Assembly (NCBI GenBank): GCA_027296185.1
Contig: JAPUJL010000123.1
Coordinates: 1 to 11,272 of the forward strand
DNA from: SAR324 cluster bacterium
GTDB lineage: Bacteria; SAR324; JACQKK01
Direction of reading: 5' to 3'
DNA: 11,272 nt
A program made the translations under genes and the position numbers. The notes under the pieces are model-generated. The model was not told the DNA's origin and did no database searches. It saw only the letters and a list, made by a program, of their open reading frames with translations. Below are positions 1 through 11,171 of the stretch, one piece after another (position 1 is the first letter of the stretch; each line of letters begins with the position of its first letter).

Positions 1-1555
1 CCTGCTCCGGCGCGAACAGCTCCCGCGCGGAGAGGGACGCCAACCCAGCTGGGACGCCAACGTCCGCGGCGGGCGATCTGGCCCCGGAGGCGACAAAGAT
101 GCGCCGGTATTCGTCCATCCAGGGCTCGAATCCCGTCACGGCCTGGCCCAGGGTCACTTCCACGCCGAGGCGGTCCAGTTCCCGCCGGTAGGATTCGACC
201 AGGGGCGCGAACTCCTCCCGGGCGGGAACCTGGGCGGCCAGCAGGGCCGCCATGCCGCCCAGGGTTTCCCTCGCTTCGATCAGGCGCACCCGGTGGCCCA
301 ACCGGGCCAGGGTGGTGGCGGCTTCCAGCCCCGCCGGTCCGCCGCCGACGACCAAGGCCGCTTCCCGCTGCGCCAACGGGAGTGGCTCGACCGGCGGCAG
401 GAGCGCCTCCCGTCCGGCGCGGGGATTGGCCAGATCGCCCAAAGGACGGTTCCAATCGCCCTTCACGACGAAGTAGCGGTTCATGCCCACATGGGGCCGG
501 ATCGCTTCCTCGCTCTCTCCGGCCAGCTTCAGGGGCAGGTCCGGGTCGGAGACCAGCGCCCGCGTCATCACGGCGGCATCGGCTTGTCCCTGGGCCAGGA
601 CTTCCCGTGCCGCCGCGGCGGTTTCAATGCGGCCCTCCGCGAAGACCGGGACGGCGGCGCCGATGGCCTTCCTGACTTGCCCTGCCAGCGGTGCCGCATG
701 GGCCTGGGGCATGGGCATGCCGGCATCGGTGGCGTGGGCCGAGTAGGGTCCGCCGATCTCCACCGAGAGATAATCGATCGCCCCGGTGGCGCACAGGCGT
801 TTCGCGATCTGCCCCGCATCTTCCGGCGTGAGCCCGCCCCAGGGCGCCAGCTCGTCGCCGCACAGTTTCACGCCGAGCACCTTGCCGGCGCCCAGCGCCT
901 CCCGCGCCGCCTCCACGACCGACAGCAGGAGCCGCATGCGGTTCTCCAGATCGCCGCCGTACGCGTCGTTGCGAAAATTTGTCAGCGGCGAGAGGAACTG
1001 CCGCAACAGGGAGTACTGCCCGGCGTTCAGCTCCACGCCATCCAGCCCGGCCCGCGCCACCCGATCGGCAGCCGCGGCGAACCCCTCGACGACCTGGGCG
1101 ATTTGGCCGTGATCCATCTCCCGCGCCATCTTCTTGCTCGCCACGTCCGGCACGGGCGAGGGCGCCCAAGGCGATTGGCGCAGCATCCGCCCGCTGGTCT
1201 GCCCGCCCGTGTGATTGAGCTGGGCGATCACGGCCAGGGCGGCGTGAGGCGAGGCTTCGCGCAATTCCTCGGCGAGCCGCTGCAAGGACGGCACGATGGC
1301 TTCGGTGTGGCCGAAGGGAACGTGCTCATAGGGGTAGTCCAGGGGATGGACCGTCAGCGCCTCGGTGACGATCAGGCCCGCGCCGCCCGCCGCCCGGGCG
1401 CGGTAGTAGGCCCGGTGCCGCGCCGAATAGCCATGATCCTTGCCGAAATTGGTCAGGTGGGCGCCGAACACGATGCGGTTCGGCAAGCTCCCCGAACCGA
1501 GCGGGAGCGGGTGCAACAGATCCGGCGGCCGGGCGTCGGGAGCGGGATCGGTCAT
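1..1555 (-). CDS. FadH/Old Yellow Enzyme-type flavin oxidoreductase of the mycofactocin cluster, C-terminus cut by window
   Basis: Seen: 518 residues with no stop, continuing past the left edge. Residues 13-350 read as an OYE-type FMN TIM barrel (LPNRIVFGAHLTNFG near 24-38, QLNHTG 112-117, QFLSPLTNFRNDAYGGDLENR 186-206 in part). A dinucleotide-binding GGGPAGL follows at 404-410 and opens the FadH-like C-terminal flavoprotein part. Known: 2,4-dienoyl-CoA reductase-type members carry FMN, FAD and a 4Fe-4S cluster and run about 640-680 residues, so roughly 130 residues are missing. FadH/OYE enzymes are recognised companions of mycofactocin loci. Odd: the segment that should hold the cluster cysteines reads RPHVGMNRYFVV...DLANP (353-378), with no cysteine. 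The barrel motif usually written HGAHGYLL reads NAGQYSLL (177-184). Start: ATG at 1555 puts the conserved barrel start about a dozen residues in. An in-frame ATG at 1594 would add 13 residues, and neither has a clear ribosome-binding site. It follows mftC closely on the same strand, so co-transcription is likely. The substrate is unknown. Confidence 0.9.
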   Translation of the reverse strand, partial: MTDPAPDARPPDLLHPLPLGSGSLPNRIVFGAHLTNFGKDHGYSARHRAYYRARAAGGAGLIVTEALTVHPLDYPYEHVPFGHTEAIVPSLQRLAEELREASPHAALAVIAQLNHTGGQTSGRMLRQSPWAPSPVPDVASKKMAREMDHGQIAQVVEGFAAAADRVARAGLDGVELNAGQYSLLRQFLSPLTNFRNDAYGGDLENRMRLLLSVVEAAREALGAGKVLGVKLCGDELAPWGGLTPEDAGQIAKRLCATGAIDYLSVEIGGPYSAHATDAGMPMPQAHAAPLAGQVRKAIGAAVPVFAEGRIETAAAAREVLAQGQADAAVMTRALVSDPDLPLKLAGESEEAIRPHVGMNRYFVVKGDWNRPLGDLANPRAGREALLPPVEPLPLAQREAALVVGGGPAGLEAATTLARLGHRVRLIEARETLGGMAALLAAQVPAREEFAPLVESYRRELDRLGVEVTLGQAVTGFEPWMDEYRRIFVASGARSPAADVGVPAGLASLSARELFAPEQ

Positions 1556-1623
1556 GGGCGGTGGAAGCCCTGGCGCATTTTTTCGGTACGCCATTGGAGG
1601 TCTGGGCGGCGGAGCCGCATCGG

Positions 1624-2697
1624 TCAAATGCCGGACGCGGGGGAACCCTCGGCGACGCCCGAAGGTGTACCCAATACGCAGTCCGGATCGGGCACGTCGA
1701 GCCGTCCCACCAGTGCATCCTTCACCGCCGGGCAGCCCCCGCCGCATCCCTCGAAGGCCGAGCAGGAGGTGCATGCCCCTTCCTCACCCGCGCGGAACAG
1801 GCCGTTGAACACCGGCGCCTCGCGCCAAACCCTTTGAAACGGGCGCGCCCGCAGGTTGCCGGCCCGGAACCGATCGGACTGAGTAAAAGCGCAGGGATAC
1901 ACGTCCCCGGTGGGGTCGATCAGGCAGGTCAGCCGCGCGGCGCCGCAGTAGCGGAAGCCCCGGGAGGGCTCTCCGCCGAATGCGTTGAGGTGGAAGAACG
2001 TGTCGCCGGTCAGGACTTCCGGGTGCCGCTCCAGCCAGCCATGGAGCGTGGCCAGCTGCGTCTGGGTGGGGCGGAGCGCCTCGTAAGCCGCCGCGCCCCG
2101 GCCCGAGGGCTTGAGCCGCGTGACCCGCAGCACCGCACCGTGCGTCTCGGCCAGGGCCAGGGCCGCGTCCAACTCGTGGGCGTTGGTGCGGCAGTAGACG
2201 AAGTTCACCGTGCGCACGATGGCGGTGCCCTGCAACCGTTCCAGCGCCGCGACGGCCTTGCGGTACGCGCCCTCGCCACGGAGGGCGTCGCATTGCGCTT
2301 CCGTCGCCCCGTCCAGGCTCAGTTGGAGGTAGATGCCGCCCAGCGCCTCCAGCTCGGCGATCCGCGCCTCGTTAAGCAAGGAGCCGTTGGTGCTGATGCA
2401 CAGGCAACTCATCCCCCGGCCCCGGGCGTAGCGCAGGAGCTCCAGAAACCCCGGATAGACGAACGGCTCCCCGCCGCCGAAGTGCACCTGGAACACCCGG
2501 GCCGCGATAAGCTGATCGGCGACGGCCTTCGCCTCGTCCAGACTCAGCTCGCCGCTGACGTCCGCCTCCGGAGATGAATCGGAGAGGCAATGGGCGCAGC
2601 GCAGGTTGCAGCGTTTGGTGACCTCCCAGGTCACCGTGAGCGGCGCGCTCAGTTGGCCGCTGCGGACGATCCCGTCCAGCCGGTCATGCAGGGACAA
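1624..2697 (-). CDS. mftC: Mycofactocin radical SAM/SPASM maturase MftC
   Basis: Known role: MftC uses S-adenosylmethionine and iron-sulfur clusters to oxidatively decarboxylate the C-terminal tyrosine of MftA and then crosslink it to the preceding valine. This is the committed step to mycofactocin, a redox cofactor for certain dehydrogenases. Seen: 357 residues. The radical-SAM motif CNLRCAHC places Cys30, 34 and 37 on the SAM cluster, and GGGEP sits at 74-78. The C-terminal SPASM region carries Cys251, 258, 269, 309, 312, 318, 322 and 340, in the spacing expected for two auxiliary clusters. Length is close to, or slightly shorter than, known MftC. Start: TTG at 2697, preceded by GGAAAGGAAAG at suitable spacing. 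It overlaps the end of mftB by 14 bases, pointing to translational coupling. The identity rests on this architecture plus the adjacent mftA and mftB, since SPASM proteins otherwise look alike. Confidence 0.95.
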   Translation of the reverse strand: MSLHDRLDGIVRSGQLSAPLTVTWEVTKRCNLRCAHCLSDSSPEADVSGELSLDEAKAVADQLIAARVFQVHFGGGEPFVYPGFLELLRYARGRGMSCLCISTNGSLLNEARIAELEALGGIYLQLSLDGATEAQCDALRGEGAYRKAVAALERLQGTAIVRTVNFVYCRTNAHELDAALALAETHGAVLRVTRLKPSGRGAAAYEALRPTQTQLATLHGWLERHPEVLTGDTFFHLNAFGGEPSRGFRYCGAARLTCLIDPTGDVYPCAFTQSDRFRAGNLRARPFQRVWREAPVFNGLFRAGEEGACTSCSAFEGCGGGCPAVKDALVGRLDVPDPDCVLGTPSGVAEGSPASGI

Positions 2698-2965
2698 GGG
2701 CTTTCCTTTCCACCAGGTCGCCGAAGAATCGGCGCATGGCGGAGATCTGGCTATTGCCGAGCCGGAAGGTGGCCGTGGCTTCTTCCATCAGCGACTCCAG
2801 GGGGGCCCGCTCCACCAACTCCAGCAGGTCGATCAAGAACCGGGAATCGACGAAATAAAGCCGGGGATCGGGGGTCCGACCCTCATAATGGAAGAGGATG
2901 CCGCCGAAAGATTCCTTGCGGAAAGCAAAGCCGGGCGCGCACCGGTAGGTTTTCGACCAATCCAT
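2684..2965 (-). CDS. mftB: Mycofactocin precursor chaperone MftB
   Basis: Known role: MftB is a small RiPP-recognition-element-like protein that binds the MftA leader and delivers it to MftC. Seen: 93 residues from the chosen ATG. The N-terminal half carries the family pattern YRCAPGFAFRKESFGGILFH (residues 7-26), then LYFVDSR and a helical C-terminal half ending FFGDLVERKALVPA. This length is normal for MftB. Start: ATG (MDWSKTYR) places the conserved Y-R about six residues in, as in relatives. An in-frame TTG at 3016 would add 17 residues that look poor (MRRGGLSRHHEPEIPNG), and neither start has a good Shine-Dalgarno. The stop codon lies inside the mftC start region. The gene sits between mftA and mftC, which is the usual order and strengthens the call. 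Confidence 0.9.
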   Translation of the reverse strand: MDWSKTYRCAPGFAFRKESFGGILFHYEGRTPDPRLYFVDSRFLIDLLELVERAPLESLMEEATATFRLGNSQISAMRRFFGDLVERKALVPA

Positions 2966-3066
2966 GCCGTTCGGGATTTCGGGTTCGTGATGCCGGGAAA
3001 GTCCGCCGCGGCGCAACGTAGCTGACAGACCGCCGCCGCGCCTTCGGGTTCGAAGTCCACCTAGGC

Positions 3067-3243
3067 TTAGTAGACGCCGCAGATGCCGTCGATGGTAAGT
3101 TCCTCGATCTGGACGGACTCCAGATTCTCCGGCGGAGCGATGCGGGAGAGGTCCAGCCGGGGGCGCCGTCTCGCGGTCTGTTCAGGGCTCCGCACCTCCC
3201 CTTCGGGGCGTGGCGGCTCGGTGGGCGGGGACGGGTTTTCCAT
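3067..3243 (-). CDS. mftA: Mycofactocin precursor peptide MftA
   Basis: Seen: a 58-codon gene opening with ATG behind TAGGAG five bases upstream, a good ribosome-binding site. It ends IEELTIDGICGVY followed by TAA. The last eight residues, IDGICGVY, are the near-invariant C-terminus of mycofactocin precursors. Val57 and Tyr58 are the pair that becomes the cofactor core, and the acidic ESVQIEEL stretch before it is the part expected to be recognised by MftB. Odd: many MftA peptides are about 30-40 residues. Here the N-terminal 40 residues form an extended arm rich in proline, arginine and glutamate (MENPSPPTEPPRPEGEV at the start). A GTG at codon 17, just after GGGGAG, could give a shorter product, but the ATG has the better ribosome-binding site. 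It is the first gene of the minus-strand mft run and the identity is near certain. Confidence 0.96.
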   Translation of the reverse strand: MENPSPPTEPPRPEGEVRSPEQTARRRPRLDLSRIAPPENLESVQIEELTIDGICGVY

Positions 3244-3255: not shown

Positions 3256-3390
3256 AAGAAAGTCGACGACCGGCGTGACAGTATGTTATGCGGGCCTGGA
3301 ACGGACGCAAGCAAGGTGTTATTCTTCCCGTATTCGCTGGCGAAAATCCACTCCCAATTCCCAGCGGGGCCCACCAACCGCTCACAGGAC

Positions 3391-3582
3391 ATGGACGCGA
3401 TCATCTACGGACTGGTGGGACATGCGGGTTCGATCAGCATGCCGCTCGAAGATTTGGATCTGGACGATCTGGCCACCGGCCGAGAGTTCGCCTATCAGGG
3501 CAAGATTTACGAAATCCGCTCCATCACCGAGGGCGACAGCACCGTGCACATGAATGTCGTGATGATCATGGAGGACGTCTAG
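3391..3582 (+). CDS. Small unrecognised acidic protein
   Basis: Not recognised. Seen: 63 residues, MDAIIYGLVGHAG at the start, then an acidic PLEDLDLDDLATG, then a segment that alternates like beta strands (FAYQGKIYEIRSI and VHMNVVMIMEDV). There is no signal peptide, no membrane segment and no cysteine. The composition looks like a real folded small protein rather than a shadow of another frame, since the opposite strand and other frames here contain nothing convincing. Start is uncertain: this ATG has AGGA only one base before it, and an in-frame ATG at 3283 would add a 36-residue, less protein-like extension. It is divergent from mftA and lies upstream of the membrane protein/MoxR/DUF58 run on the same strand. 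A strong inverted repeat right after its stop suggests it may be its own transcription unit. Whether it relates to mycofactocin or to the downstream genes cannot be told. Confidence 0.55.
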   Translation: MDAIIYGLVGHAGSISMPLEDLDLDDLATGREFAYQGKIYEIRSITEGDSTVHMNVVMIMEDV

Positions 3583-3697: not shown

Positions 3698-5263
3698 ATG
3701 GAACGGACCGACCTCGATTCACTGGCCAGGCGCCTGGCCGGACGGCACCGTGCGGCCCAGCGGTGGCGCGCGGCCGTGCTGGACACGGCCGCGGCGGCCG
3801 GGCTGTCCCTGGTTGCGTCGACGGTGCGCAACGCGTGGGTGCCGGCGCTTCCCCTCGCCGTGACGCTCACAGTGCTGGGGCTGTTGTGGGCTGCCACCTT
3901 GGGTTGGCTCTGGTGGCGGGCCCGAGCCAACGCGGCGCGGCTGATTCTTCTGGCCGACCGGCAGGTGGCGGGCGAGGAGCAACTGGCGACCGCCTACGAG
4001 CTGCATTCGATCCGGCCGCAACACCCGTTCCTGCCCCTGCTGCTGAACCGGTGCCAGGCCCTCGTGCCGCGGGTGGACGTGGCGCGGCTGATTCCCTACG
4101 AGCTGAGCCGCCCGGCCGTCGGCGCGCTGTTGTTCGCCACGGCCGCGCTCGTGCTGTACCTGCTACCGCCCACCCTGCTGCAGGTATCCCTGGCCGAGGA
4201 GCCATCGGCCGATCTCCTGATCGTCGAGGAAGGCGAACGGCTGAAAAATTTGGCGGCGCGGCTGGAGGAAATCGCACGGCGGGAGGGCTTTGAGTCGGTA
4301 CGGGCGCTGGCCAAGGAACTGCGGGAAGTCTCGGAGCAACTGCAATCCGGAGAGCTCAGCGCGGTGGACGCCGCACAGCGCATGCAGGAGTTGAGCGAGC
4401 TGGCCGAGGAGCTGATCGAGGGCGACCCCAATTCCAAGCTGCCCAACTTCGGCGGGGAGACCCTGAGCGAAACGGACCCCTCCGCCGGAGGCGAGGAGCC
4501 CGATCCCGACGCCCAGGGCGAGGCGGCGGCGGAAGACCGCATCGGTCTCGGCGGCCGGGGGCCGGAGAACCTTCTGAACCGCAAGGCCGAATCCGAGGCT
4601 ATCCGGGGGGCGGAACAGGACGCAAACAAGCAGGCGGATGGAGACGACTTCGGCAAAGAACCCCCCGCGGAATCGCCCTACGCCCGAAAGATACGGGATC
4701 CCGAACGGCGGATGGAATTGGAAGTGCTCGAGCGCACCCAACTGCGGTTGAAGGAAGCCTCCCGGGAGCTGCTCAATCAATTCATCTCACAGGACAATCC
4801 GCAGCAGCAGCCCGATCCGAACTCTCCGCCACAGCAAGGCGAGGGCGACCCCAGCGGCCAGCAAATGTATCAGCAGTCGGACGATCAGATAGATTCCGTG
4901 CCCAACCCGGGAATGGCGACCGGACCCGACGGAGAAGTGGCGCAGGAATCCAGCGAAGCGCCCTCCCAGTCCGAGCACAGGGAGGATCGCGATTCCGGCG
5001 TGCCGGAGTCCCACGGATTCGAAGACGTGAAAATCGAGGGCATCGAAGGCGAGGAGCCCGCCGAAGAGTTCTGGGTGCAGCAACTGCCCACCCTGAATGC
5101 GCGGAAAATCCGTGCGGATGGCACCGTCCCTCAGTTCCAACGCACCACGATCACGGCCCAGAGCGGCACGGCCGTTCCGCGGGCTTACCGATCCGTGGTG
5201 AAGACGTACTATCTCGAGTTGGACCGCCTCACGGGCGAGCAGAAATCGGCGGGAGCGCGCTGA
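3698..5263 (+). CDS. Membrane protein with coiled-coil and acidic Gln/Pro-rich tail, next to MoxR-DUF58
   Basis: Function unknown. Seen: 521 residues. Hydrophobic segments lie at about 24-41, 49-73 and 138-160, leaving a charged stretch (75-137, with LADRQVAGEEQLATAYEL) between the second and third. After the third segment come helices with coiled-coil character (about 165-222, EEGERLKNLAARLEEI), then a long acidic, low-complexity region (about 225-460) rich in Glu, Gly, Pro and Gln (DNPQQQPDPNSPPQQG). The end is more ordered (FWVQQLPTLNARKIRADG, then VVKTYYLELDRL). Layout and context recall the DUF4175/low-complexity membrane proteins that often accompany MoxR and DUF58 genes, but I assign no family. 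The ATG is preceded only by a weak ACAGG. The gene precedes moxR by 84 bases on the same strand. It probably anchors or works with the MoxR/DUF58 pair at the inner membrane (inference). Confidence 0.85.
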   Translation: MERTDLDSLARRLAGRHRAAQRWRAAVLDTAAAAGLSLVASTVRNAWVPALPLAVTLTVLGLLWAATLGWLWWRARANAARLILLADRQVAGEEQLATAYELHSIRPQHPFLPLLLNRCQALVPRVDVARLIPYELSRPAVGALLFATAALVLYLLPPTLLQVSLAEEPSADLLIVEEGERLKNLAARLEEIARREGFESVRALAKELREVSEQLQSGELSAVDAAQRMQELSELAEELIEGDPNSKLPNFGGETLSETDPSAGGEEPDPDAQGEAAAEDRIGLGGRGPENLLNRKAESEAIRGAEQDANKQADGDDFGKEPPAESPYARKIRDPERRMELEVLERTQLRLKEASRELLNQFISQDNPQQQPDPNSPPQQGEGDPSGQQMYQQSDDQIDSVPNPGMATGPDGEVAQESSEAPSQSEHREDRDSGVPESHGFEDVKIEGIEGEEPAEEFWVQQLPTLNARKIRADGTVPQFQRTTITAQSGTAVPRAYRSVVKTYYLELDRLTGEQKSAGAR

Positions 5264-5289
5264 AGCTTCGGAAACGGCCTCGGCGCTCA

Positions 5290-5320
5290 TGGGCGGCAAG
5301 ACCCCTGCGCCCAAATTTTT
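5290..5320 (+). terminator. Weak hairpin with T-run ahead of the MoxR gene
   Basis: TGGGCG (5290-5295) can pair with CGCCCA (5308-5313) across a 12-base loop, followed by AATTTTT. The stem is short. It could be a weak terminator or attenuator that lowers expression of the MoxR gene relative to the membrane protein gene before it, or chance. Confidence 0.25.
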
Positions 5321-5347
5321 CAAACGAGTTTTCAATCGGATAAGCCA

Positions 5348-6331
5348 ATGAGTTTGGAGTCTGAAGTCGACGCGGTGAAGATTGAGTTCGCGAAAATCAA
5401 AAAGGAATTGCGGAAGAAGATCGTCGGCAACGACGAGATCATCGAGGGCATCCTGACCTGCCTCCTGTGCAACGGTCACGCGCTGCTCGAAGGCCCTCCC
5501 GGGCTCGGGAAGACCTCGATCATCAAGAGCCTGGGCGAGGCGCTGCACCTGGAATTCTCGCGGATCCAATTCACGCCCGACTTGATGCCGGCGGACATCA
5601 TCGGCACGCGCATCGTGATGGAGGACGACTCGGGCAAGCGGTTCTTCGAGTTTCAGAAGGGCCCGATGTTCGCCAACATCGTCCTGGCCGACGAGATCAA
5701 CCGGGCGACCCCCAAGACCCAGTCGGCCCTGCTGGAATCCATGCAGGAGGGGCGGGCTACGGTGGGCCGCGACGAGCATCAACTGCCCCATCCGTTCCTG
5801 GTGTTGGCGACCCAGAACCCGATCGAGATGGAGGGCACCTATCCCTTGCCCGAGGCGCAACTGGACCGGTTTTTCTTCAAGCTGATCATGAAACCCCCCA
5901 CCCGGGAGGAGTTGCTGGAGATCATCGACATGACCACCGCGGAGGAGCCCGAAGCGATCCAGCCCGTGGTCAGCGAGGAACACATCCACGAGCTGCAGCG
6001 GCTGGTGCGCATGGTGCCCGTGGCCAGCCCGGTGAAAAATTACGCTTTGCGCCTGGTGATGGCCACCCACCCGAAGGCCGAGGAGGCCATCGACGAGACG
6101 CGCAAGTACGTCCGCTACGGCGCCAGCCCCCGGGCGCTGCAGAGCATGATCCTCTCCGCCAAGACCCGCGCCCTGCTGCACGGGCGGGTGAGCGCCAGCT
6201 TCGAGGATATCCGCCAGGCCACACCCGCCTGCCTGCGGCACCGGGTGATCCTGAACTTCGAAGGCGAGGCGGAGGGCATCACCACCGAGGACATCAACGG
6301 CTTTCTGCTCGAAACGATTCAGCCGGAATAG
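5348..6331 (+). CDS. MoxR-family AAA+ ATPase
   Basis: Known role: MoxR ATPases are cytoplasmic chaperone-like AAA+ proteins that act with VWA-domain partners to mature or insert metal or cofactor into client complexes, or to assemble envelope machines. Seen: 327 residues, the usual length. Walker A is GPPGLGKTS (49-57), Walker B is IVLADEIN (111-118), sensor 1 is ATQN (154-157), and the PLPEAQLDRFFFK stretch at 167-178 follows. Sensor 2 is GASPRA (248-253). The family stretch INRATPKTQSALLESMQE follows Walker B. All ATPase residues look intact, so it should be active. Only six bases separate its stop from the DUF58 gene, so the two are almost certainly co-transcribed and probably interact. 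The ribosome-binding site is weak (GGATAAG before ATG). The client is not evident from the sequence; the nearby mycofactocin genes are on the other strand and not obviously linked. Confidence 0.95.
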   Translation: MSLESEVDAVKIEFAKIKKELRKKIVGNDEIIEGILTCLLCNGHALLEGPPGLGKTSIIKSLGEALHLEFSRIQFTPDLMPADIIGTRIVMEDDSGKRFFEFQKGPMFANIVLADEINRATPKTQSALLESMQEGRATVGRDEHQLPHPFLVLATQNPIEMEGTYPLPEAQLDRFFFKLIMKPPTREELLEIIDMTTAEEPEAIQPVVSEEHIHELQRLVRMVPVASPVKNYALRLVMATHPKAEEAIDETRKYVRYGASPRALQSMILSAKTRALLHGRVSASFEDIRQATPACLRHRVILNFEGEAEGITTEDINGFLLETIQPE

Positions 6332-6337
6332 TCGCCC

Positions 6338-7219
6338 ATGCCCGCCACGCTGTTCGACCAGACCTACCTCGCCAAACTGGAGCGTCTCCAGTTGCTCGCC
6401 CGGCGTCTGCTCCGCAGCCGCTCGGCGGGGGAACACCTCTCCATGGGCAAGGGCGTCAGCCTGGAATTCAACGAGTACCGGCACTACAATCCGGGCGACG
6501 ACTTCCGCCTGATCGACTGGAACGTCTACAGCCGCACGGACAAGCTTTTCCTCAAGCTGTTCGCGCCGGAGCAGGATCTGAACGTCTACCTGCTGGTCGA
6601 CGACAGCGGATCCATGAACTACGGCAAGCCCCCGAAGATTCAGCTGGCGCGGCAGGTGGCGGGCTCCCTGGGCTACATTGCACTGGCCCAGCACGACCGC
6701 ATCAGCATGTTCGCCATGGGCCGCGAGCTGGTGGAACGGCTGCATCTCCAACGCAGCAAGAGCCAGGCGTTCCAGTTCTTCCGCACTCTCGAGGAGATGC
6801 GCTGCGAGGGGAAGGGCAAGTTCAACAGCCTGATCGACCGCTTCATGCGCAAGAACCTGCCCAGCGGCGTGGTGGTGCTAATCTCGGACCTGCTGGACGA
6901 GGAAGGATACGAGGTGGGGCTGAAGTACCTGGCCGCCAGCCGCTTCGACGTGGTCGTGATTCACATCCTCGATCCCACCGAGGTGCGCGTCACGGCCAGC
7001 GGACCCTACATCATGGAGGACATGGAGGAGGACGCGGAGGAGAAGATCGCCATCACGCCGGCGCTCCGGGAACGTTACAACGCCCGCATGGCGGAGTTCC
7101 TGGAAGAGGTGGAAAGCGTTTGCCGCCGCCTGCGGATCGAGTACCTGCGCAGCCTCACCACCGCGTCCTTCGAGGACATCGTCCTGCGCTATCTCCGCTC
7201 GGGCGCCCTGGTGCACTGA
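6338..7219 (+). CDS. DUF58 domain protein, MoxR partner
   Basis: Known: DUF58 proteins contain a VWA-like fold and are usually encoded directly after a MoxR ATPase; the exact biochemical role is unsettled. Seen: 293 residues. The signature YRHYNPGDDFRLIDWNVYSR occupies 47-66. A MIDAS-like DDSGSM lies at 88-93, and LISDLLDEEG at 181-190 supplies a further acidic site. The three together suggest a divalent metal site. There is no membrane segment, unlike some longer DUF58 proteins with two N-terminal helices, so this is the short soluble form. Near the C-terminus, SFEDIVLRYLRSGALV is typical of the short type. ATG start, with no clear Shine-Dalgarno in the six-base gap, is consistent with translational coupling to the MoxR gene. 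A 14-bp direct repeat sits across its stop codon. Confidence 0.93.
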   Translation: MPATLFDQTYLAKLERLQLLARRLLRSRSAGEHLSMGKGVSLEFNEYRHYNPGDDFRLIDWNVYSRTDKLFLKLFAPEQDLNVYLLVDDSGSMNYGKPPKIQLARQVAGSLGYIALAQHDRISMFAMGRELVERLHLQRSKSQAFQFFRTLEEMRCEGKGKFNSLIDRFMRKNLPSGVVVLISDLLDEEGYEVGLKYLAASRFDVVVIHILDPTEVRVTASGPYIMEDMEEDAEEKIAITPALRERYNARMAEFLEEVESVCRRLRIEYLRSLTTASFEDIVLRYLRSGALVH

Positions 7220-7233
7220 GCCCTGGTGCACTG
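7205..7233 (+). repeat. Tandem 14-bp repeat over the DUF58 stop codon
   Basis: GCCCTGGTGCACTG occurs at 7205-7218 and again at 7220-7233, one base apart. The first copy encodes ALVH plus the first bases of the stop, the second is non-coding. It looks like a slippage duplication. Confidence 0.85.
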
Positions 7234-7254
7234 GGCCCCGGCGCGGCGGCTACG

Positions 7255-7737
7255 ATGCCATCCCCCGAATCCACCGGACCGCCGCTCAACGTGGTGCTGG
7301 TGGAGCCGCAGATACCGCCCAACACCGGCAACGTGGCCCGGTTGTGCGCCGCGGCGGGGTGCCGCCTGATCCTCGCGGGGCAGCTGGGCTTCGAGCTTAA
7401 CGACCGCACGCTCAAGCGGGCCGGGCTGGACTATTGGGAATTCGTGGAATGGGAACACGTCCCCGACCGGGAGGAGTTGCTCGCCGGTCTTCCTGGCGGT
7501 GCGTTCCATCTGCTGACCACCCACGCCACCACGCCCTACACCCGGATTCCCGCCTGCTGGGGGGATTACCTGGTGTTCGGCAAGGAGACCGCCGGGCTGC
7601 CCAAGACCTGGCTGAAGCGCCACCCGGAGCGGTGTTACACGATCCCCATGGCCCAGCCGGGGGTGCGCTCCTTGAATTTGTCCTCGGCTGTGGCTATCGT
7701 ACTCTATGACGCCCTGCGGCGCGTGCGGCCGTTTTGA
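7255..7737 (+). CDS. trmL: tRNA (cytidine/uridine-34 2'-O)-methyltransferase, TrmL type
   Basis: Known role: TrmL, a SPOUT-class enzyme, methylates the 2'-OH of the wobble base of leucine tRNAs using S-adenosylmethionine, in the cytoplasm. Seen: 160 residues, close to the usual length. The three trefoil-knot motifs are present: motif 1 PPNTGNVARLC (21-31), motif 2 LVFGKETAGLP (106-116) and motif 3 VRSLNLSSAVAIVLYD (137-152). The core begins at LNVVLVEP, so the first ten residues (MPSPESTGPP) are an extra short arm or reflect a start-site error. The ATG has no good ribosome-binding site. It lies 35 bases after the DUF58 gene on the same strand, so read-through is likely, but the functions are unrelated. 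The call is firm at family level, and wobble-base specificity is inferred from the short single-domain form. Confidence 0.93.
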   Translation: MPSPESTGPPLNVVLVEPQIPPNTGNVARLCAAAGCRLILAGQLGFELNDRTLKRAGLDYWEFVEWEHVPDREELLAGLPGGAFHLLTTHATTPYTRIPACWGDYLVFGKETAGLPKTWLKRHPERCYTIPMAQPGVRSLNLSSAVAIVLYDALRRVRPF

Positions 7738-7912
7738 AGCACCGGCCGTGCTTCCGCCGTTTCTCCCGCCGGCATGGAGCCCGTGCCGCGCGGGCCGAAC
7801 TCCCCCAGATCGGTGCAAGGATGCCCGGCGCGCCGGAAGGCGCAATTTGGCGCTGAATTTGAATACCCTTAAGGGTTCGGATTCTTAAATTTCCCCGCGC
7901 CGGGAGGCATTC
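7738..7912 (+). promoter_or_regulatory. Intergenic region with a 12-bp palindrome before the CvpA-type gene
   Basis: This 175-base gap is locally AT-richer near its right end. It contains the perfect palindrome ACCCTTAAGGGT at 7865-7876, between AT-rich stretches (AATTTGGCGCTGAATTTG before, TTCTTAAATTT after). It is a reasonable place for a promoter and operator for the downstream gene. I cannot identify a firm -35/-10 pair. Confidence 0.4.
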
Positions 7913-7915
7913 TTG
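7901..7915 (+). promoter_or_regulatory. Ribosome-binding site deciding a TTG start
   Basis: GGGAGG lies about six bases before the TTG at 7913-7915. The match and spacing are good, and they justify using TTG as the start of the CvpA-family protein, giving an MSINLFDAI N-terminus typical of the family. Confidence 0.7.
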
Positions 7916-8368
7916 AGCATCAATCTCTTCGATGCGATCGTCTTCGTCATCTTGGTGGCGTTCATGCTGCTCAGCTACGTGCGCGGCGCCACGCGCGAAC
8001 TGCTGTCCCTAGTGGGATTGGTGATCGGGTACTGGGCCGGACTGCAATTCCACCAGGATCTGGGCGGCATGCTCGAGCCGATCGTGCAGGACCTGCAGCT
8101 GGCGGAGTTGCTATCGTTCGTCATGATCCTCGTGGCAGGCTACCTGGTAGGCGCTTTCGTGGGCGGATTCCGCGAAGGCAGACCGCGCGGACTGCTGAAT
8201 CACCTGATCGGCGGCGGCGTGGGGGTGCTGAAAGGATTGGTCGTGTCGCTGGCCCTTTACTGGGTGGTGATCGCCTACGTTCCGCCTTTCCAGGATGAGC
8301 TCGCGGCCTCCCGCTCCGCACCCTACTTGGGCCTCCTGCTGCAATACGTAGCCAGCCTGACCCTCTAG
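7913..8368 (+). CDS. cvpA: CvpA-family inner membrane protein
   Basis: Known: CvpA proteins are small four-helix inner-membrane proteins linked to colicin V production, purF-linked loci and envelope stress or bile tolerance; the molecular function is unsettled. Seen: 151 residues with hydrophobic segments at about 6-22, 30-46, 64-85 and 98-122. The family stretch RGATRELLSLVGLVIGYWAG (24-43) follows the first helix, where the conserved Arg-Gly sits. A glycine-rich run (LIGGGVGVLKGLVVSLAL) opens the fourth helix. The start is TTG, supported by GGGAGG at good spacing. The C-terminus ends near the fourth helix after a short periplasmic-looking tail. It sits between trmL and a lipoprotein gene, not beside purF, so context adds little. 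Confidence 0.9.
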   Translation: MSINLFDAIVFVILVAFMLLSYVRGATRELLSLVGLVIGYWAGLQFHQDLGGMLEPIVQDLQLAELLSFVMILVAGYLVGAFVGGFREGRPRGLLNHLIGGGVGVLKGLVVSLALYWVVIAYVPPFQDELAASRSAPYLGLLLQYVASLTL

Positions 8369-8413
8369 CGCTTTCTTCCGGGCACAGCGGAGCGAAGGCG
8401 GCGCAATTTTTTT
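8369..8413 (+). terminator. Possible rho-independent terminator after the CvpA-type gene
   Basis: CGCTTTC plus TTCCG (8369-8380) can pair with CGGAG and GAAGGCG (ending about 8398), with one bulged base and two G-T pairs, around a GGCACAG loop. A run of seven T follows at 8407-8413, six bases after the stem. The spacer is longer than ideal. The run ends only 17 bases before the next start codon. Confidence 0.4.
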
Positions 8414-8430
8414 CGGTCGCACGGACGACG

Positions 8431-9921
8431 ATGGATTCCACGACCCGCGGACGCTTCTGGACCCGGTGGAGTTCCGCCGCAGCGGTGGTGCTGCTGGCTG
8501 GCGCTTGCACCCTGCTGATCGACGCGGAGCCGGAGCCCGGCGCCGAACTCGGCGAGCCGTCGGTGTTTACCCCGCGCATCGAGGCGGTGGTGGTGCCGCC
8601 GTTCACCCGGGCGGAGGGGGTGCAGATCAACCCCGACGACATGGAGTTCCTTCGCCAGCGCCTCCGGGAAATCCTGGAGCGCCATCCGCCGCTGGAAACC
8701 TTCGACGAGCCCCCGGACGAGTTGCCCGGTGTGGCCACCCTGCGCACGGAATTCACCCGCTACCGGGTAGAGGAGGTGGGCGGGGATGCGTTCTACCTGC
8801 GCACCATCGATCTTGGGATCCGGATCGCCATCGAGTTTCAGGCATCCGAGGACGAGCCCCTGGAAATCACGAAGGCATACTCCTACCAAAAGCTCTATTT
8901 GCCCGAGCAGGACGTGACGGCGCTGCTGTTCGACCTCCAGACCGCCCTGATCGAAACGGCGGCGCTGGTCGAGATCGAGCTGTTTCCCGGCGAGCCGCCG
9001 GACGAGACGACGATCGAAGCCGCGCTGGACCCCGATACGGGCGAGGAAATGGCGACGCCCCTGCTGACCAAGGGCAACCGCTTTGCCGGGGAGGGCGCGG
9101 TCGATCAGGCGATCTACTACTGGGAGCTCTCCCTCTACGCCCCCGAGGAAGAATCGGTTCCTGAACTGTACAAGCTCACCCGCCGCACCCTCAATCTGCT
9201 GCGCGGCGAGGGCATTGCCGAGGAGACCCTCGAGGCCCTGACCGGGCTGGTGGACGCGCCCCCCGTCGACTTTGTCGACTTCCGCAGCGCCGTCAGGCGA
9301 GCGCTGGGGGCGAAGATCCCCGAGGAAGCGCAGATCCTCGAGCTGTCGAGCATCCGCCTCAACCACGCCCACTACAGCCTCGCCGCGGCCCACCTCAACC
9401 TGGCGCGGGCCTATCGGCCGCGGCGGCAGTTCGACCTGGCCGCCTACCACTTCGCCATGGCCTTCGCCCATAACCCCTCCGAGGCGGCGCTGGATGGCTG
9501 GGGACAGGTTCAGGCGGCGCGCAACCTGGTGCCTGGCGGGCTGGCGAACCGCAGCGCCATGCGGCTCTACCTGAGCATTCCGCCCCCCGCGACGGCACGG
9601 CACCTGCCCGGAAAGTTCGATGAGGCGGTGCTGCCCGAATCCACCATCCGCACCGAAGGGATTGCGGCGCGCATTCGGCGCATCGTCGGCGGAGAGAACG
9701 GAGGGGGTGGCGATCTGGGTCCGATCGAAATCGAAATCGAGCCCGTGCCTCTGGAACCCCTCGAATCGACGGTGATCGAATCCTTCTCGCCTGAAGACCT
9801 GGAACCCCTCGAAGAAGATCCCGAGGAATTCGCCGTGCCCGAGCCGCCGGACGTCGGCGCGCTCCCCCCGCCGGAAGACATTCCGCTGGACGTGGTTCCC
9901 CTGGAGCCCGAAGCCCAGTAA
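8431..9921 (+). CDS. Predicted lipoprotein with helical repeats and acidic proline-rich tail
   Basis: Not recognised. Seen: 496 residues. A basic N-terminus and hydrophobic stretch (SAAAVVLLAGAC) lead to Cys26 in a lipobox-like LAGAC, so it is probably a lipid-anchored envelope protein. Residues 46-190 look like a mixed alpha/beta domain (EAVVVPPFTRAEG, then a helix DMEFLRQRLREILERH) reminiscent of CsgG/LpoB-like envelope lipoproteins, a weak impression. Residues about 203-235 and 315-350 look like TPR-type helix pairs (GNRFAGEGAVDQAIYYWELS; AAHLNLARAY, then FDLAAYHFAMAFAHNP). The tail (about 431-496) is almost entirely Glu, Pro, Leu, Ile and Asp, with repeated PLEPLE-like units. ATG start with a weak ribosome-binding site. 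It is followed after 77 bases by the FlgT-like gene on the same strand, so a shared envelope role is plausible. Confidence 0.8.
   Translation: MDSTTRGRFWTRWSSAAAVVLLAGACTLLIDAEPEPGAELGEPSVFTPRIEAVVVPPFTRAEGVQINPDDMEFLRQRLREILERHPPLETFDEPPDELPGVATLRTEFTRYRVEEVGGDAFYLRTIDLGIRIAIEFQASEDEPLEITKAYSYQKLYLPEQDVTALLFDLQTALIETAALVEIELFPGEPPDETTIEAALDPDTGEEMATPLLTKGNRFAGEGAVDQAIYYWELSLYAPEEESVPELYKLTRRTLNLLRGEGIAEETLEALTGLVDAPPVDFVDFRSAVRRALGAKIPEEAQILELSSIRLNHAHYSLAAAHLNLARAYRPRRQFDLAAYHFAMAFAHNPSEAALDGWGQVQAARNLVPGGLANRSAMRLYLSIPPPATARHLPGKFDEAVLPESTIRTEGIAARIRRIVGGENGGGGDLGPIEIEIEPVPLEPLESTVIESFSPEDLEPLEEDPEEFAVPEPPDVGALPPPEDIPLDVVPLEPEAQ
9723..9813 (+). repeat. Short in-frame repeats in the lipoprotein tail
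   Basis: A hexanucleotide run (ATCGAAATCGAAATCGA, encoding IEIEIE) starts at 9724. The 15-mer CTGGAACCCCTCGAA occurs at 9751-9765 and 9799-9813, 48 bases apart and so in frame. Both encode LEPLE units, suggesting the tail grew by small duplications. Confidence 0.7.
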
Positions 9922-9984
9922 AATACGCTACGCATTCATGCCCCCCGGGGCCGCGTCGAACAGGGCGTGCGGCGGTTCAAGCTG

Positions 9985-9998
9985 AGGAGGAACGACCC
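9985..9998 (+). promoter_or_regulatory. Strong ribosome-binding site for the FlgT-like gene
   Basis: AGGAGGA (9985-9991) stands seven bases before the ATG. It is the best Shine-Dalgarno in the window and suggests this secreted protein is made in quantity compared with its neighbours. Confidence 0.75.
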
Positions 9999-11171
9999 AT
10001 GAAGTCCCTGCGACTCTCCCTGCTGGTTACGATCATCGGGCTGTGGGCCCACAGCGCCCTGGCCGTGGAGGTTGAAGCCACCGGCATGGCGGCGATCCTT
10101 TCGGGAAACATCGGGAGCGCCCGCACCCAGGCCGTCCTGAACGCCCAGCGTAGCGCGGTCGAGCAGGGTGTCGGGGTGATCCTGGATTCCAAGACCCTGA
10201 TGGAGAATTTCGACCTCATCCAGGATCAGGTGCTCACCTCGAGCAAGGGATTCATCACCAATTACCTGGTGCTCGAAGAGAAGAAGAGCGCTGACGGGAG
10301 GAGCTTTCTGGTCAAGATCAAGGCCAACGTTTCCACCGATCTGTTGGAAGACCGGCTCTCGGCCCTGCGCATCCTCCACCGGAAGATGGGTAACAAGCGG
10401 CTGATGGTGATCTATCACTCGGAGAACCCGAACGCCATGAAGCGCACCCACGGCGCCACCACGGCGGCTCTGCAAGCCCTGCGCGACGAGTTCAACAGCG
10501 CCGGATTCCGGCTGTTCAACGAGTCGGCCACAAGTGAGGTCTATCGGCAAATCGAGGTGGCGGGCCGGGTGGACCGGCCGGTGGACGACCTGATCGCCAT
10601 GGCCCTGGACCAGCAGGCGGATATCCTGGTGCGCTTCGAGAACATCGGCGGCAAGCGGGGTCCCCAGGGGGGTGCCTTCTCCGCGGCGTTTTCCACGATT
10701 CGCGTGAGCGTGTTCGATACCAACACCGGGCGGCAGATCGCTGACGCCCAGACGGAAGGCAAGCAATTGCTCCGCGCCGACGCCGGTCCGTACGACTGGG
10801 AAAAGGCCCTTGCCCAGGCCTCCATCAAGGCAGCCCGCAACGTGGCCGACGAGGCCATCTCCAAGATCGGCAACTACTACGAGCAGGTGGAGGATCAGGG
10901 CAATGCGATGCTGCTGGTGTTCCGCGGATTCGACGAGGATCAGAAGGACGCGATCCTGGATTACCTGGAGAACACCCCGGGCTTCCAGCAGCTCTCCGAA
11001 TTGAAGAACACCCTCAACTACATGGAAATTGAGGTCTTCTCCAACCAGCAGCCCTCGCGGCTGCGGCGCATGGTGCGCTCGGGCCTGAAGGATAAGGGGT
11101 TGGCCATGCAAACCCAATCGGCCAGCCGCAACCGGATCGTCTTCACCAACCCCCGGCAATCGGACAACTAG
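9999..11171 (+). CDS. Secreted FlgT/LPP20-like envelope protein
   Basis: Seen: 390 residues with a clear Sec signal peptide (basic MKSLRLS, hydrophobic LLVTIIGLW, ALA cleavage after residue 22). The mature N-terminus (about 23-115: VEVEATGMAAILSGNIGSAR, repeated Ala/Arg-rich helix, then KANVSTDLLEDRL) matches the pattern of the LPP20/FlgT N-terminal domain, in which a helix bearing AVLNAQRSAVEQGVG packs on a sheet. The middle (about 130-290) has features of a CsgG-like domain (LMVIYHSENPN, DQQADILVRFEN, AFSTIRVSVFDTNTGRQIADAQTEG). The last 100 residues repeat an alpha/beta pattern (MLLVFRGFDEDQKDAILDYL). Known: FlgT is a periplasmic flagellar-basal-body protein of three such domains. There are no flagellar genes in the window, so a motility role is not supported. 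It has a strong ribosome-binding site, follows a lipoprotein gene, and a palindrome comes after its stop. Confidence 0.75.
   Translation: MKSLRLSLLVTIIGLWAHSALAVEVEATGMAAILSGNIGSARTQAVLNAQRSAVEQGVGVILDSKTLMENFDLIQDQVLTSSKGFITNYLVLEEKKSADGRSFLVKIKANVSTDLLEDRLSALRILHRKMGNKRLMVIYHSENPNAMKRTHGATTAALQALRDEFNSAGFRLFNESATSEVYRQIEVAGRVDRPVDDLIAMALDQQADILVRFENIGGKRGPQGGAFSAAFSTIRVSVFDTNTGRQIADAQTEGKQLLRADAGPYDWEKALAQASIKAARNVADEAISKIGNYYEQVEDQGNAMLLVFRGFDEDQKDAILDYLENTPGFQQLSELKNTLNYMEIEVFSNQQPSRLRRMVRSGLKDKGLAMQTQSASRNRIVFTNPRQSDN

What the first reader, a model, noticed from the sequence alone, without database searches (positions are those of the whole stretch)
1..3243. Mycofactocin locus in an apparently Gram-negative-type genome
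A clear mftA with IDGICGVY end, then mftB, mftC and a FadH/OYE partner lie next to genes typical of Gram-negative chromosomes. Mycofactocin is best known from Actinobacteria, with scattered occurrences elsewhere, so this may be an underexplored lineage of the system, possibly acquired by transfer. The mycofactocin-dependent dehydrogenases here are unknown.
Basis: partly seen in the sequence, partly recalled or inferred. Interest (0 to 1): 0.75.

Follow-up and report, generated by a model that had tools for sequence, protein, structure and literature searches.

The report
MftD-less mycofactocin system in SAR324 bacteria
This stretch of a SAR324 bacterium's genome holds real genes for the peptide-derived redox cofactor mycofactocin, in an unusual form in which two standard pathway enzymes were not found and a modified flavoprotein stands next to the core genes, which may be another way to finish or recycle the cofactor.

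Summary
On the minus strand lie mftA (3067-3243, ending IDGICGVY), mftB (2684-2965), mftC (1624-2697) and a FadH/OYE flavoenzyme cut by the contig end (1-1555). MftA, MftB and MftC exceed NCBIfam cut-offs. The lineage is SAR324; true MftC is in 6 of 10 genomes of the own family and 0 of 42 others searched in the phylum.

The system is dispersed and variant. MftD and MftE pass their cut-offs in 0 of 10 family genomes. An MftF-like protein lies unlinked in 5 of 6 mftC+ genomes, not in the own MAG. An SDR with the mycofactocin-type insertion is in 6 of 6.

Across 53 mft loci, MftD (8) and OYE (29) never co-occur; 16 have neither. SAR324 OYEs lack all four Fe-S cysteines: 3 of 3 loci, 46 of the 47 best database hits.

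Best reading: a functional variant in which OYE does MftD's and/or MftG's job (inferred). Databases already label SAR324 MftC, and mftD absence with OYE was noted in Saccharopolyspora (PMC11162802). New variant of a known kind.

The parts
3067..3243 (-). mftA, mycofactocin precursor peptide, 58 aa, C-terminal IDGICGVY (core Val-Tyr)
   Evidence: TIGR03969 and NF040489 above curated cut-offs; same C-terminus in relatives L004, L006/L063, L007
2684..2965 (-). mftB, peptide-binding chaperone (93 aa from ATG 2965; longer in-frame TTG start at 3016)
   Evidence: TIGR03967 40.3 bits, cut-off 33 (frame scanned from 3028); relatives 49-64% identical
1624..2697 (-). mftC, radical SAM/SPASM maturase, 357 aa
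   Evidence: TIGR03962 344.9 bits, cut-off 265; Pfam Radical_SAM and SPASM; named database hits are mycofactocin radical SAM maturases
1..1555 (-). FadH/OYE-family flavoenzyme, 3' end cut by the contig end; lacks all four 4Fe-4S cysteines of the family
   Evidence: Oxidored_FMN plus FAD/NAD domains; nearest NCBIfam TIGR03997; 0 of 4 cysteines
3390..3582 (+). conserved small ORF of unknown function, divergent from mftA (63 aa); neighbour, not shown to belong to the system
   Evidence: conserved beside mftA in L063, L004, L007; no Pfam hit
3698..11171 (+). flank used for synteny: 521-aa protein, MoxR-like AAA ATPase (5348-6331), 6338-7219 (DUF58-like, name recalled), TrmL-like methyltransferase (7255-7737), CvpA (7913-8368), 8431-9921, LipL46/FlgT_N-like (9999-11171)
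   Evidence: TrmL, CvpA, 8431-9921 and 9999-11171 have relatives in L063, L004 and L007; 3698-7219 only in L063

Best explanation
The window carries the core of a functional, dispersed, MftD-less mycofactocin system of SAR324 bacteria. MftB presents MftA to MftC, which decarboxylates and cyclises the C-terminal Val-Tyr (known MftC chemistry; inferred here from family membership). An unidentified peptidase frees the core, since no MftE was found. An unlinked MftF-like glycosyltransferase decorates it. The adjacent OYE-type FMN enzyme, here without its Fe-S cluster ligands, does the oxidation that MftD does elsewhere and/or re-oxidises the carrier as MftG does (inferred). An unlinked SDR with the NAD-covering type of insertion uses the cofactor (inferred). 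Shown by sequence: the genes, their co-occurrence, the absence of MftD and MftE over cut-off, the OYE/MftD exclusion in the loci compared and the cysteine loss. Not shown: any reaction.
For: MftA, MftB and MftC over cut-offs. MftC over cut-off in 6 of 10 family genomes and 0 of 42 others searched in the phylum. MftF-like full-length matches in 5 of 6 mftC+ and 0 of 4 mftC- genomes (Fisher p 0.024, ignoring descent). SDR relative (58-68% identical to the own one) with the insertion in 6 of 6 mftC+ genomes; the top TIGR03971 hit of each of the 4 mftC- genomes is 30-32% identical and lacks it (p 0.005; only one SDR per mftC- genome was compared). Its two best NCBIfam families are both 'mycofactocin-coupled'. 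MftD over cut-off in 0 of 10 family genomes and 0 of 15 genomes with more distant MftC, while two positive-control plasmids score 715 and 711 bits. Of 53 loci, MftD 8, OYE 29, both 0, neither 16 (p 0.0008 ignoring descent). OYE sits in mftD's slot right after mftC in Streptomyces plasmids against mftABCDEF. Saccharopolyspora clusters lack mftD, carry a TIGR03997 OYE, and S. erythraea is reported there to make a methylated mycofactocin (PMC11162802, passage).
Against: Only two independent MftD/OYE switches on the MftC tree, too few for a phylogeny-aware test. 16 of 53 loci have neither within the DNA fetched, some of them truncated. Oxygen alone does not explain the split: of 29 OYE loci, 7 are from groups known as anaerobes (six Desulfobacterota, one Dehalococcoidales), but 6 are Streptomyces and 5 haloarchaea, mostly aerobes (with record titles; lifestyles recalled). 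G005/L005 has no OYE in 6.6 kb after mftC; G004/L062 shows no mftA-like end anywhere on its 6.4-kb contig. Own genome: no MftF found (73.6% complete). The SDRs and four of five MftF-like matches lie below curated cut-offs. The trimethylamine-dehydrogenase catalytic residues (recalled) do not appear at the aligned site. No ETF beside SAR324 mft loci (0 of 6); ETF was not searched genome-wide.
Confidence: 0.6

Rival explanations
1. OYE takes no part in making the cofactor; it only re-oxidises mycofactocinol (MftG's role) or is a client ene-reductase, and some unrelated flavin oxidase replaces MftD.
For: OYE relatives with solved structures are electron-transfer or ene-reductase type enzymes (FadH 1ps9, NCR 6qkg, histamine dehydrogenase 3k30). 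Many OYE loci carry ETF-like and FixC-like genes, and MftG was seen only in two MftD-type loci, the ones its references came from. PMC11778925 (section 5 read) says that about 25% of MftC genomes lack MftG and leaves open whether another enzyme replaces it.
Against: It leaves MftD, whose deletion abolishes mycofactocin in M. smegmatis (PMC7491314, passages), without a named replacement. The strongest MftD-like proteins of SAR324 (G002, G004, G009; two-piece matches of about 68-131 bits each) also occur in mftC- G001 and are missing from the other three mftC+ genomes at that strength.
Confidence: 0.3
2. The product is not free mycofactocin: without MftE and MftD the cyclised core stays on the peptide or ends as glycosylated AHDP, a different RiPP.
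For: MftE over cut-off in 0 of 10 family genomes; MftD in 0 of 10; delta-mftD M. smegmatis accumulates AHDP species (PMC7491314, passages).
Against: MftE is dispensable in M. smegmatis (same passages). An insertion-bearing SDR, expected to need the redox-active form, tracks mftC 6 of 6. S. erythraea, whose cluster also lacks mftD, is reported to make a methylated mycofactocin (PMC11162802, passage).
Confidence: 0.12
3. A canonical mftABCDEF system whose mftD and mftE lie in unsequenced parts of incomplete MAGs.
For: Own MAG is 73.6% complete in 547 contigs; mftF is unlinked where found.
Against: MftD is not over cut-off in any of the six mftC+ genomes, of completeness 73.6, 80, 91, 93, 72 and 91%; taking completeness as the chance of seeing a gene, missing it six times has a chance of about 8e-6 (my arithmetic).
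Confidence: 0.03
4. Contamination or chimeric contig from another phylum.
For: The system is confined to one family of the phylum.
Against: Same locus and parts of the flank in named SAR324 and Lambdaproteobacteria contigs L004, L006/L063 and L007; the six SAR324 MftC form one clade with 100/100 support.
Confidence: 0.01

Closest known systems
Canonical mycofactocin cluster mftABCDEF (Tsukamurella L173, Streptomyces NBC_00080 L172; in part Mycolicibacterium L097)
   Same: MftA with IDGICGVY-type end, MftB, MftC; in SAR324 an MftF-like protein and an insertion-type SDR elsewhere in the genome
   Different: MftD and MftE not over cut-off, no MftG beside the loci; genes spread over at least three loci; OYE in the slot after mftC
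OYE/ETF-type mycofactocin clusters (Streptomyces plasmids L099, L168-L171, L174; Saccharopolyspora in PMC11162802; Chloroflexota L152-L157)
   Same: OYE follows mftC or lies near it; no MftD in the stretch fetched
   Different: Those I fetched have two OYEs, ETF- and FixC-like genes, and several have MftE and MftF in the stretch; SAR324 has one OYE with 0 of 4 cysteines and no adjacent ETF. In the alignment, 42 of 44 non-SAR324 rows keep at least three cysteines in the loop (L013 two, L155_3871 one)
Desulfobacterota and haloarchaeal mft loci (among L008-L023, L096, L098)
   Same: mftA, mftC and one or two OYEs in many; no MftD over cut-off in the 15 genomes searched
   Different: MftC only 41-49% identical for L008-L023; separate branches of the tree; ETF-like or MftF genes nearby in several
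FadH (2,4-dienoyl-CoA reductase, 1ps9) and histamine/trimethylamine dehydrogenases (3k30, 6de6, 1djn)
   Same: FMN barrel plus C-terminal FAD/NAD-type domains by alignment
   Different: Fe-S loop replaced by a conserved RPHxGMxRYFxVRGDWNRPLGDLxNPRAGR-like loop

Membership tests
Mycofactocin biosynthesis locus (Haft 2011) | MftA peptide with conserved C-terminus | tested here: met
   TIGR03969 34.1 bits against 25; Pfam MftA below its cut-off
Mycofactocin biosynthesis locus (Haft 2011) | MftB next to MftA | tested here: met
   TIGR03967 40.3 against 33
Mycofactocin biosynthesis locus (Haft 2011) | MftC radical SAM maturase | tested here: met
   TIGR03962 344.9 against 265
Mycofactocin biosynthesis locus (Haft 2011) | MftF glycosyltransferase in the same genome | tested here: inconclusive
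   Not found in the own MAG; found unlinked in 5 of 6 mftC+ family genomes, one over and four under the cut-off
Mycofactocin biosynthesis locus (Haft 2011) | At least one dependent nicotinoprotein (SDR, Zn or Fe dehydrogenase) | tested here: inconclusive
   SDR with insertion in 6 of 6, best families mycofactocin-coupled but below cut-offs; Zn and Fe types not searched
Canonical MftD/MftE-type cluster | MftD present | tested here: not met
   0 of 10 family genomes over cut-off; controls 715 and 711 bits
Canonical MftD/MftE-type cluster | MftE present | tested here: not met
   0 of 10 over cut-off; one 127-bit hit in G003 on another contig. No positive control of my own for this model
Mycofactocin FadH/OYE family (TIGR03996/TIGR03997) | Score above curated cut-off | tested here: not met
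   Full-length L004 protein 568 bits against 793 (OYE_2) and 425 against 628 (OYE_1)
Mycofactocin FadH/OYE family (TIGR03996/TIGR03997) | Four-cysteine Fe-S motif seen in FadH and Streptomyces OYE1/OYE2 | tested here: not met
   0 of 4 in 3 of 3 SAR324 loci and in 46 of the 47 best database hits
Mycofactocin-coupled SDR (TIGR03971) | Insertion at the NAD site | tested here: met
   No gap at the insertion against carveol dehydrogenase 3oec or an above-cut-off TIGR03971 protein; an ordinary SDR of G005 lacks it; 6 of 6
Mycofactocin-coupled SDR (TIGR03971) | Score above curated cut-off | tested here: not met
   198-239 bits in the six genomes against 300
Mycofactocin-coupled SDR (TIGR03971) | Non-exchangeable NAD, activity with mycofactocin | not testable with these tools
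   Needs biochemistry

The most novel reading that the evidence does not exclude
OYE-family flavoenzymes are a second, widespread route that completes and recycles mycofactocin without the aerobic MftD (and without MftG); in SAR324 this enzyme has further turned into an Fe-S-free form in which the former cluster loop became a new conserved functional loop, so that electrons leave FMN by another path, with mftF physically coupled to the Alternative Complex III respiratory operon.
Probability: 0.3. Interest if true: 0.8.

Novelty: new variant of a known kind. Interest (0 to 1): 0.58.

Why it matters
Two open points become testable. MftD's step is described as aerobic (PMC8406134, discussion passage), yet mft loci without MftD occur in groups known as anaerobes (7 of the 29 OYE loci: six Desulfobacterota, one Dehalococcoidales; lifestyles recalled), though also in aerobic Streptomyces and haloarchaea. 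And PMC11778925 (section 5) leaves open what, if anything, replaces MftG in about a quarter of MftC genomes. The exclusion of MftD by OYE in the 53 loci compared names one candidate for both. SAR324 gains a predicted peptide-derived redox carrier with a candidate client SDR, and its OYE without Fe-S ligands gives a natural contrast for asking what the cluster does in the family.

Tried and rejected
Canonical system with genes lost to assembly: rejected by MftD absence in six genomes. MftF absent: my first idea after (none in the own genome); overturned, which found it unlinked in 5 of 6. Recent transfer: not supported (synteny). Common origin with Desulfobacterota MftC: disfavoured. G008's partial MftC-like hit (L064) is not counted as MftC (92.8 bits; at most 39% to others). 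OYE as a plain amine dehydrogenase: the catalytic residues of trimethylamine dehydrogenase are recalled, not looked up; SAR324 proteins show AGQ followed by Y, H or T at the aligned place, so this sub-mechanism is weak. The L005 SDR beside mftC scores over the cut-off of a hydroxybutyrate-dehydrogenase family and was set aside as client. 'Anaerobes need OYE' as the whole story: not borne out, since Streptomyces and haloarchaea have OYE too. Phylogeny-aware test of OYE against MftD: two pairs only. Rows dropped: L148 (3.9-kb second copy) and L167 (same contig as L009), so 55 loci became 53; of the 26 loci I left out L024-L029 (24-32% identical); of the plasmid records I used H1-H12; L168 and L174 have identical MftC. 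The clade-level Fisher test (p 0.023) used clades that I counted by eye and I do not rely on it. In one search P0043 (4 cysteines, 35% identical, 1031 aa) is the exception among P0001-P0047; the shorter hits P0054 and P0086 also have 0. Searches scored 8000 candidates and listed 120 each.
Full report
What is in the window. The window is the whole of contig C28 of a 2.73-Mb, 547-contig, 73.6% complete MAG. On the minus strand lie mftA (3067-3243), mftB (2684-2965), mftC (1624-2697) and a FadH/OYE flavoenzyme cut by the contig end (1-1555). MftA, MftB and MftC exceed NCBIfam cut-offs. The rest of the contig, on the plus strand, carries genes such as a MoxR-like ATPase, a TrmL-like methyltransferase, CvpA and a LipL46/FlgT_N-like protein.

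Which organism. The nearest named MftC loci are SAR324 cluster and 'Candidatus Lambdaproteobacteria' contigs at 70-74% identity; the other 22 loci of that scan are at 49% or less. Of 52 genomes of the phylum searched, MftC is over the cut-off in 6, all within the own family of 10. L005 and L062 differ: the L005 contig begins about 140 bases before mftB, and L062 shows no mftA-like end anywhere on its 6.4-kb contig. So mftA was seen in 4 of the 6 SAR324 loci. OYE follows mftC in 3; L007 and L062 end shortly after mftC, and L005 has none in 6.6 kb. The six SAR324 MftC form one clade (100/100). Databases already label such proteins 'mycofactocin radical SAM maturase [SAR324 cluster bacterium]', so the presence itself is recorded, though I found no paper holding both 'mycofactocin' and 'SAR324'.

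Missing and displaced parts. MftE reaches its cut-off in 0 of 10 family genomes, with one 127-bit hit on another contig in G003. MftD reaches it in 0 of 10. The MftD model works: Thermomicrobium and Mycolicibacterium plasmids score 715 and 711 bits, while 0 of 15 genomes with more distant MftC pass. For MftE I ran no positive control of my own; 0 of those 15 genomes pass its cut-off, the best at 170.4 against 172. MftF-like full-length matches lie on other contigs in 5 of 6 mftC+ SAR324 genomes (289, 270, 265, 251 and 232 bits, cut-off 280); in the 4 mftC- genomes the best is a partial 98-bit match, and nothing was found in the own MAG. In all five the gene stands upstream of conserved genes which, where scanned in L114, are an Alternative Complex III operon: multihaem cytochrome, molybdopterin/Fe-S subunit, NrfD, ActD and cytochrome c.

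Client dehydrogenase. The five best TIGR03971 hits of the family (228-239 bits, cut-off 300) lie one each in five mftC+ genomes, the own genome included. Relatives were found in all six mftC+ genomes (five at 58-68% identity to the own one); the top TIGR03971 hit of each of the four mftC- genomes is 30-32% identical and lacks the insertion (other SDRs of those genomes were not compared). The insertion aligns without a gap to carveol dehydrogenase 3oec, of a family whose insertion covers the NAD (PMC5264612, passages). For the two scanned, the two best NCBIfam families are both 'mycofactocin-coupled' SDRs, below cut-off.

OYE in MftD's place. I compared 53 mft loci: 6 SAR324, 16 of 26, 12 plasmid records and 19 Chloroflexota after dropping two duplicates. 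The Chloroflexota came from 400 genomes of that phylum with 20 positives. With my thresholds (MftD 200, OYE 150 bits) and within the DNA fetched (up to about 10 kb each side, often less), MftD is present in 8, OYE in 29, both in 0, neither in 16 (p 0.0008 ignoring descent). In Streptomyces plasmids OYE1-OYE2-etfA-FixC-like-ferredoxin-etfB follows mftC directly, where mftD follows it in the Streptomyces NBC_00080 and Tsukamurella plasmids. The MftC tree needs at least two MftD changes, and in 200 random pairings OYE never goes the same way; two pairs cannot reach significance. Of the 29 OYE loci 6 are Streptomyces, 5 haloarchaea, 6 Desulfobacterota, 1 Dehalococcoidales, 6 other Chloroflexota, 3 SAR324 and 2 other, so lack of oxygen alone does not explain OYE. 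The pattern was seen before in one genus: Saccharopolyspora clusters lack mftD, have a TIGR03997 OYE 'with unknown function', and S. erythraea makes a methylated mycofactocin (PMC11162802, passage). I did not find the general exclusion stated in the listings, abstracts and passages that I saw, but most subscription papers are not in that library and I did not read every listed paper.

The SAR324 OYE is itself changed. FadH and Streptomyces OYE1/OYE2 share four Fe-S cysteines. SAR324 OYEs have none: 3 of 3 loci, while 42 of 44 other rows (one a duplicate) keep at least three in that loop. Of the 47 best database hits 46 have none; the exception is a 1031-aa protein, 35% identical. The 46 are 45-99% identical to the query. 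Among the next 73 hits, 36 keep four, 35 keep one or two, and two shorter ones have none. The former ligand loop is strongly conserved (RPHxGMxRYFxVRGDWNRPLGDLxNPRAGR-like), which speaks for a new role and not decay. FMN- and FAD-site stretches still align. Eight contig lengths are shared between the OYE and MftC listings, which suggests (by length only) the same contigs. No ETF genes lie beside SAR324 mft loci (0 of 6; not searched genome-wide). Loss of the cluster and lack of an adjacent ETF fit each other: in relatives the cluster passes electrons between FMN and FAD or ETF (recalled).

Mechanism, with steps marked. Shown by sequence: precursor, chaperone, maturase, OYE, MftF-like protein and insertion-type SDR co-occur in the family, with the gaps told above. 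Inferred from known families: MftC chemistry, glycosylation and SDR use of the carrier. Inferred from exclusion and position: OYE replaces MftD and/or MftG. Unknown: the peptidase; an unspecified peptidase also stands in for MftE in M. smegmatis (PMC7491314, passages).

Against the reading. 16 loci have neither enzyme; among them a Thermogemmatispora-like Chloroflexota clade (L159-L166) has MftF, and mftA in the four loci read, but no MftD or OYE nearby. L005 has no OYE in 6.6 kb. Several scores are below curated cut-offs. SAR324 branches are long on the tree.

Noticed in passing
L120:664-2394, L121:3903-5585, L117:7686-9359, L118:8123-10084, L119:7752-9488, L125 (partial): A protein of about 560-650 aa stands before the insertion-type SDR in 6 of 6 mftC+ SAR324 genomes, in G002 partial; no Pfam hit for the one scanned.
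   Followed up: partly
L112-L116: MftF-like gene upstream of the Alternative Complex III genes in 5 of 5 genomes where it was found, with a small conserved protein before it in four. Not checked in mftC- genomes.
   Followed up: partly
L159-L166: Thermogemmatispora/Ktedonobacteria-like mft loci with MftF but neither MftD nor OYE nearby; an unknown protein of about 530-590 aa beside MftF in the two loci annotated.
   Followed up: partly
P0050-P0118 (subset), L155:3871: A second group of OYE proteins (Chloroflexota, Competibacter and unnamed ones) keeps only 1-2 of the four Fe-S cysteines, perhaps an independent partial loss.
   Followed up: no
L008, L009, L010, L011, L012, L016, L021, L022: One OYE of these loci reads C-x-x-D-N in place of C-x-x-C-N, a possible aspartate ligand.
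   Followed up: no
window 3390-3582: Conserved 63-aa ORF divergent from mftA in four SAR324 loci, no Pfam family.
   Followed up: no
L018 and L021 (JACRMM): One MAG titled Deltaproteobacteria carries two mft loci, one with OYE, ETF-like, FixC-like and MftF genes in the stretch fetched and one without.
   Followed up: no
L062 (G004:C305): mftB and mftC of a 93% complete SAR324 genome without any mftA-like end on the 6.4-kb contig; mftA may lie elsewhere or be lost.
   Followed up: partly
L002 (G000:C4): A second protein of the own genome related to MftC (24% identical, 396-aa frame; 111 bits with the MftC model).
   Followed up: no
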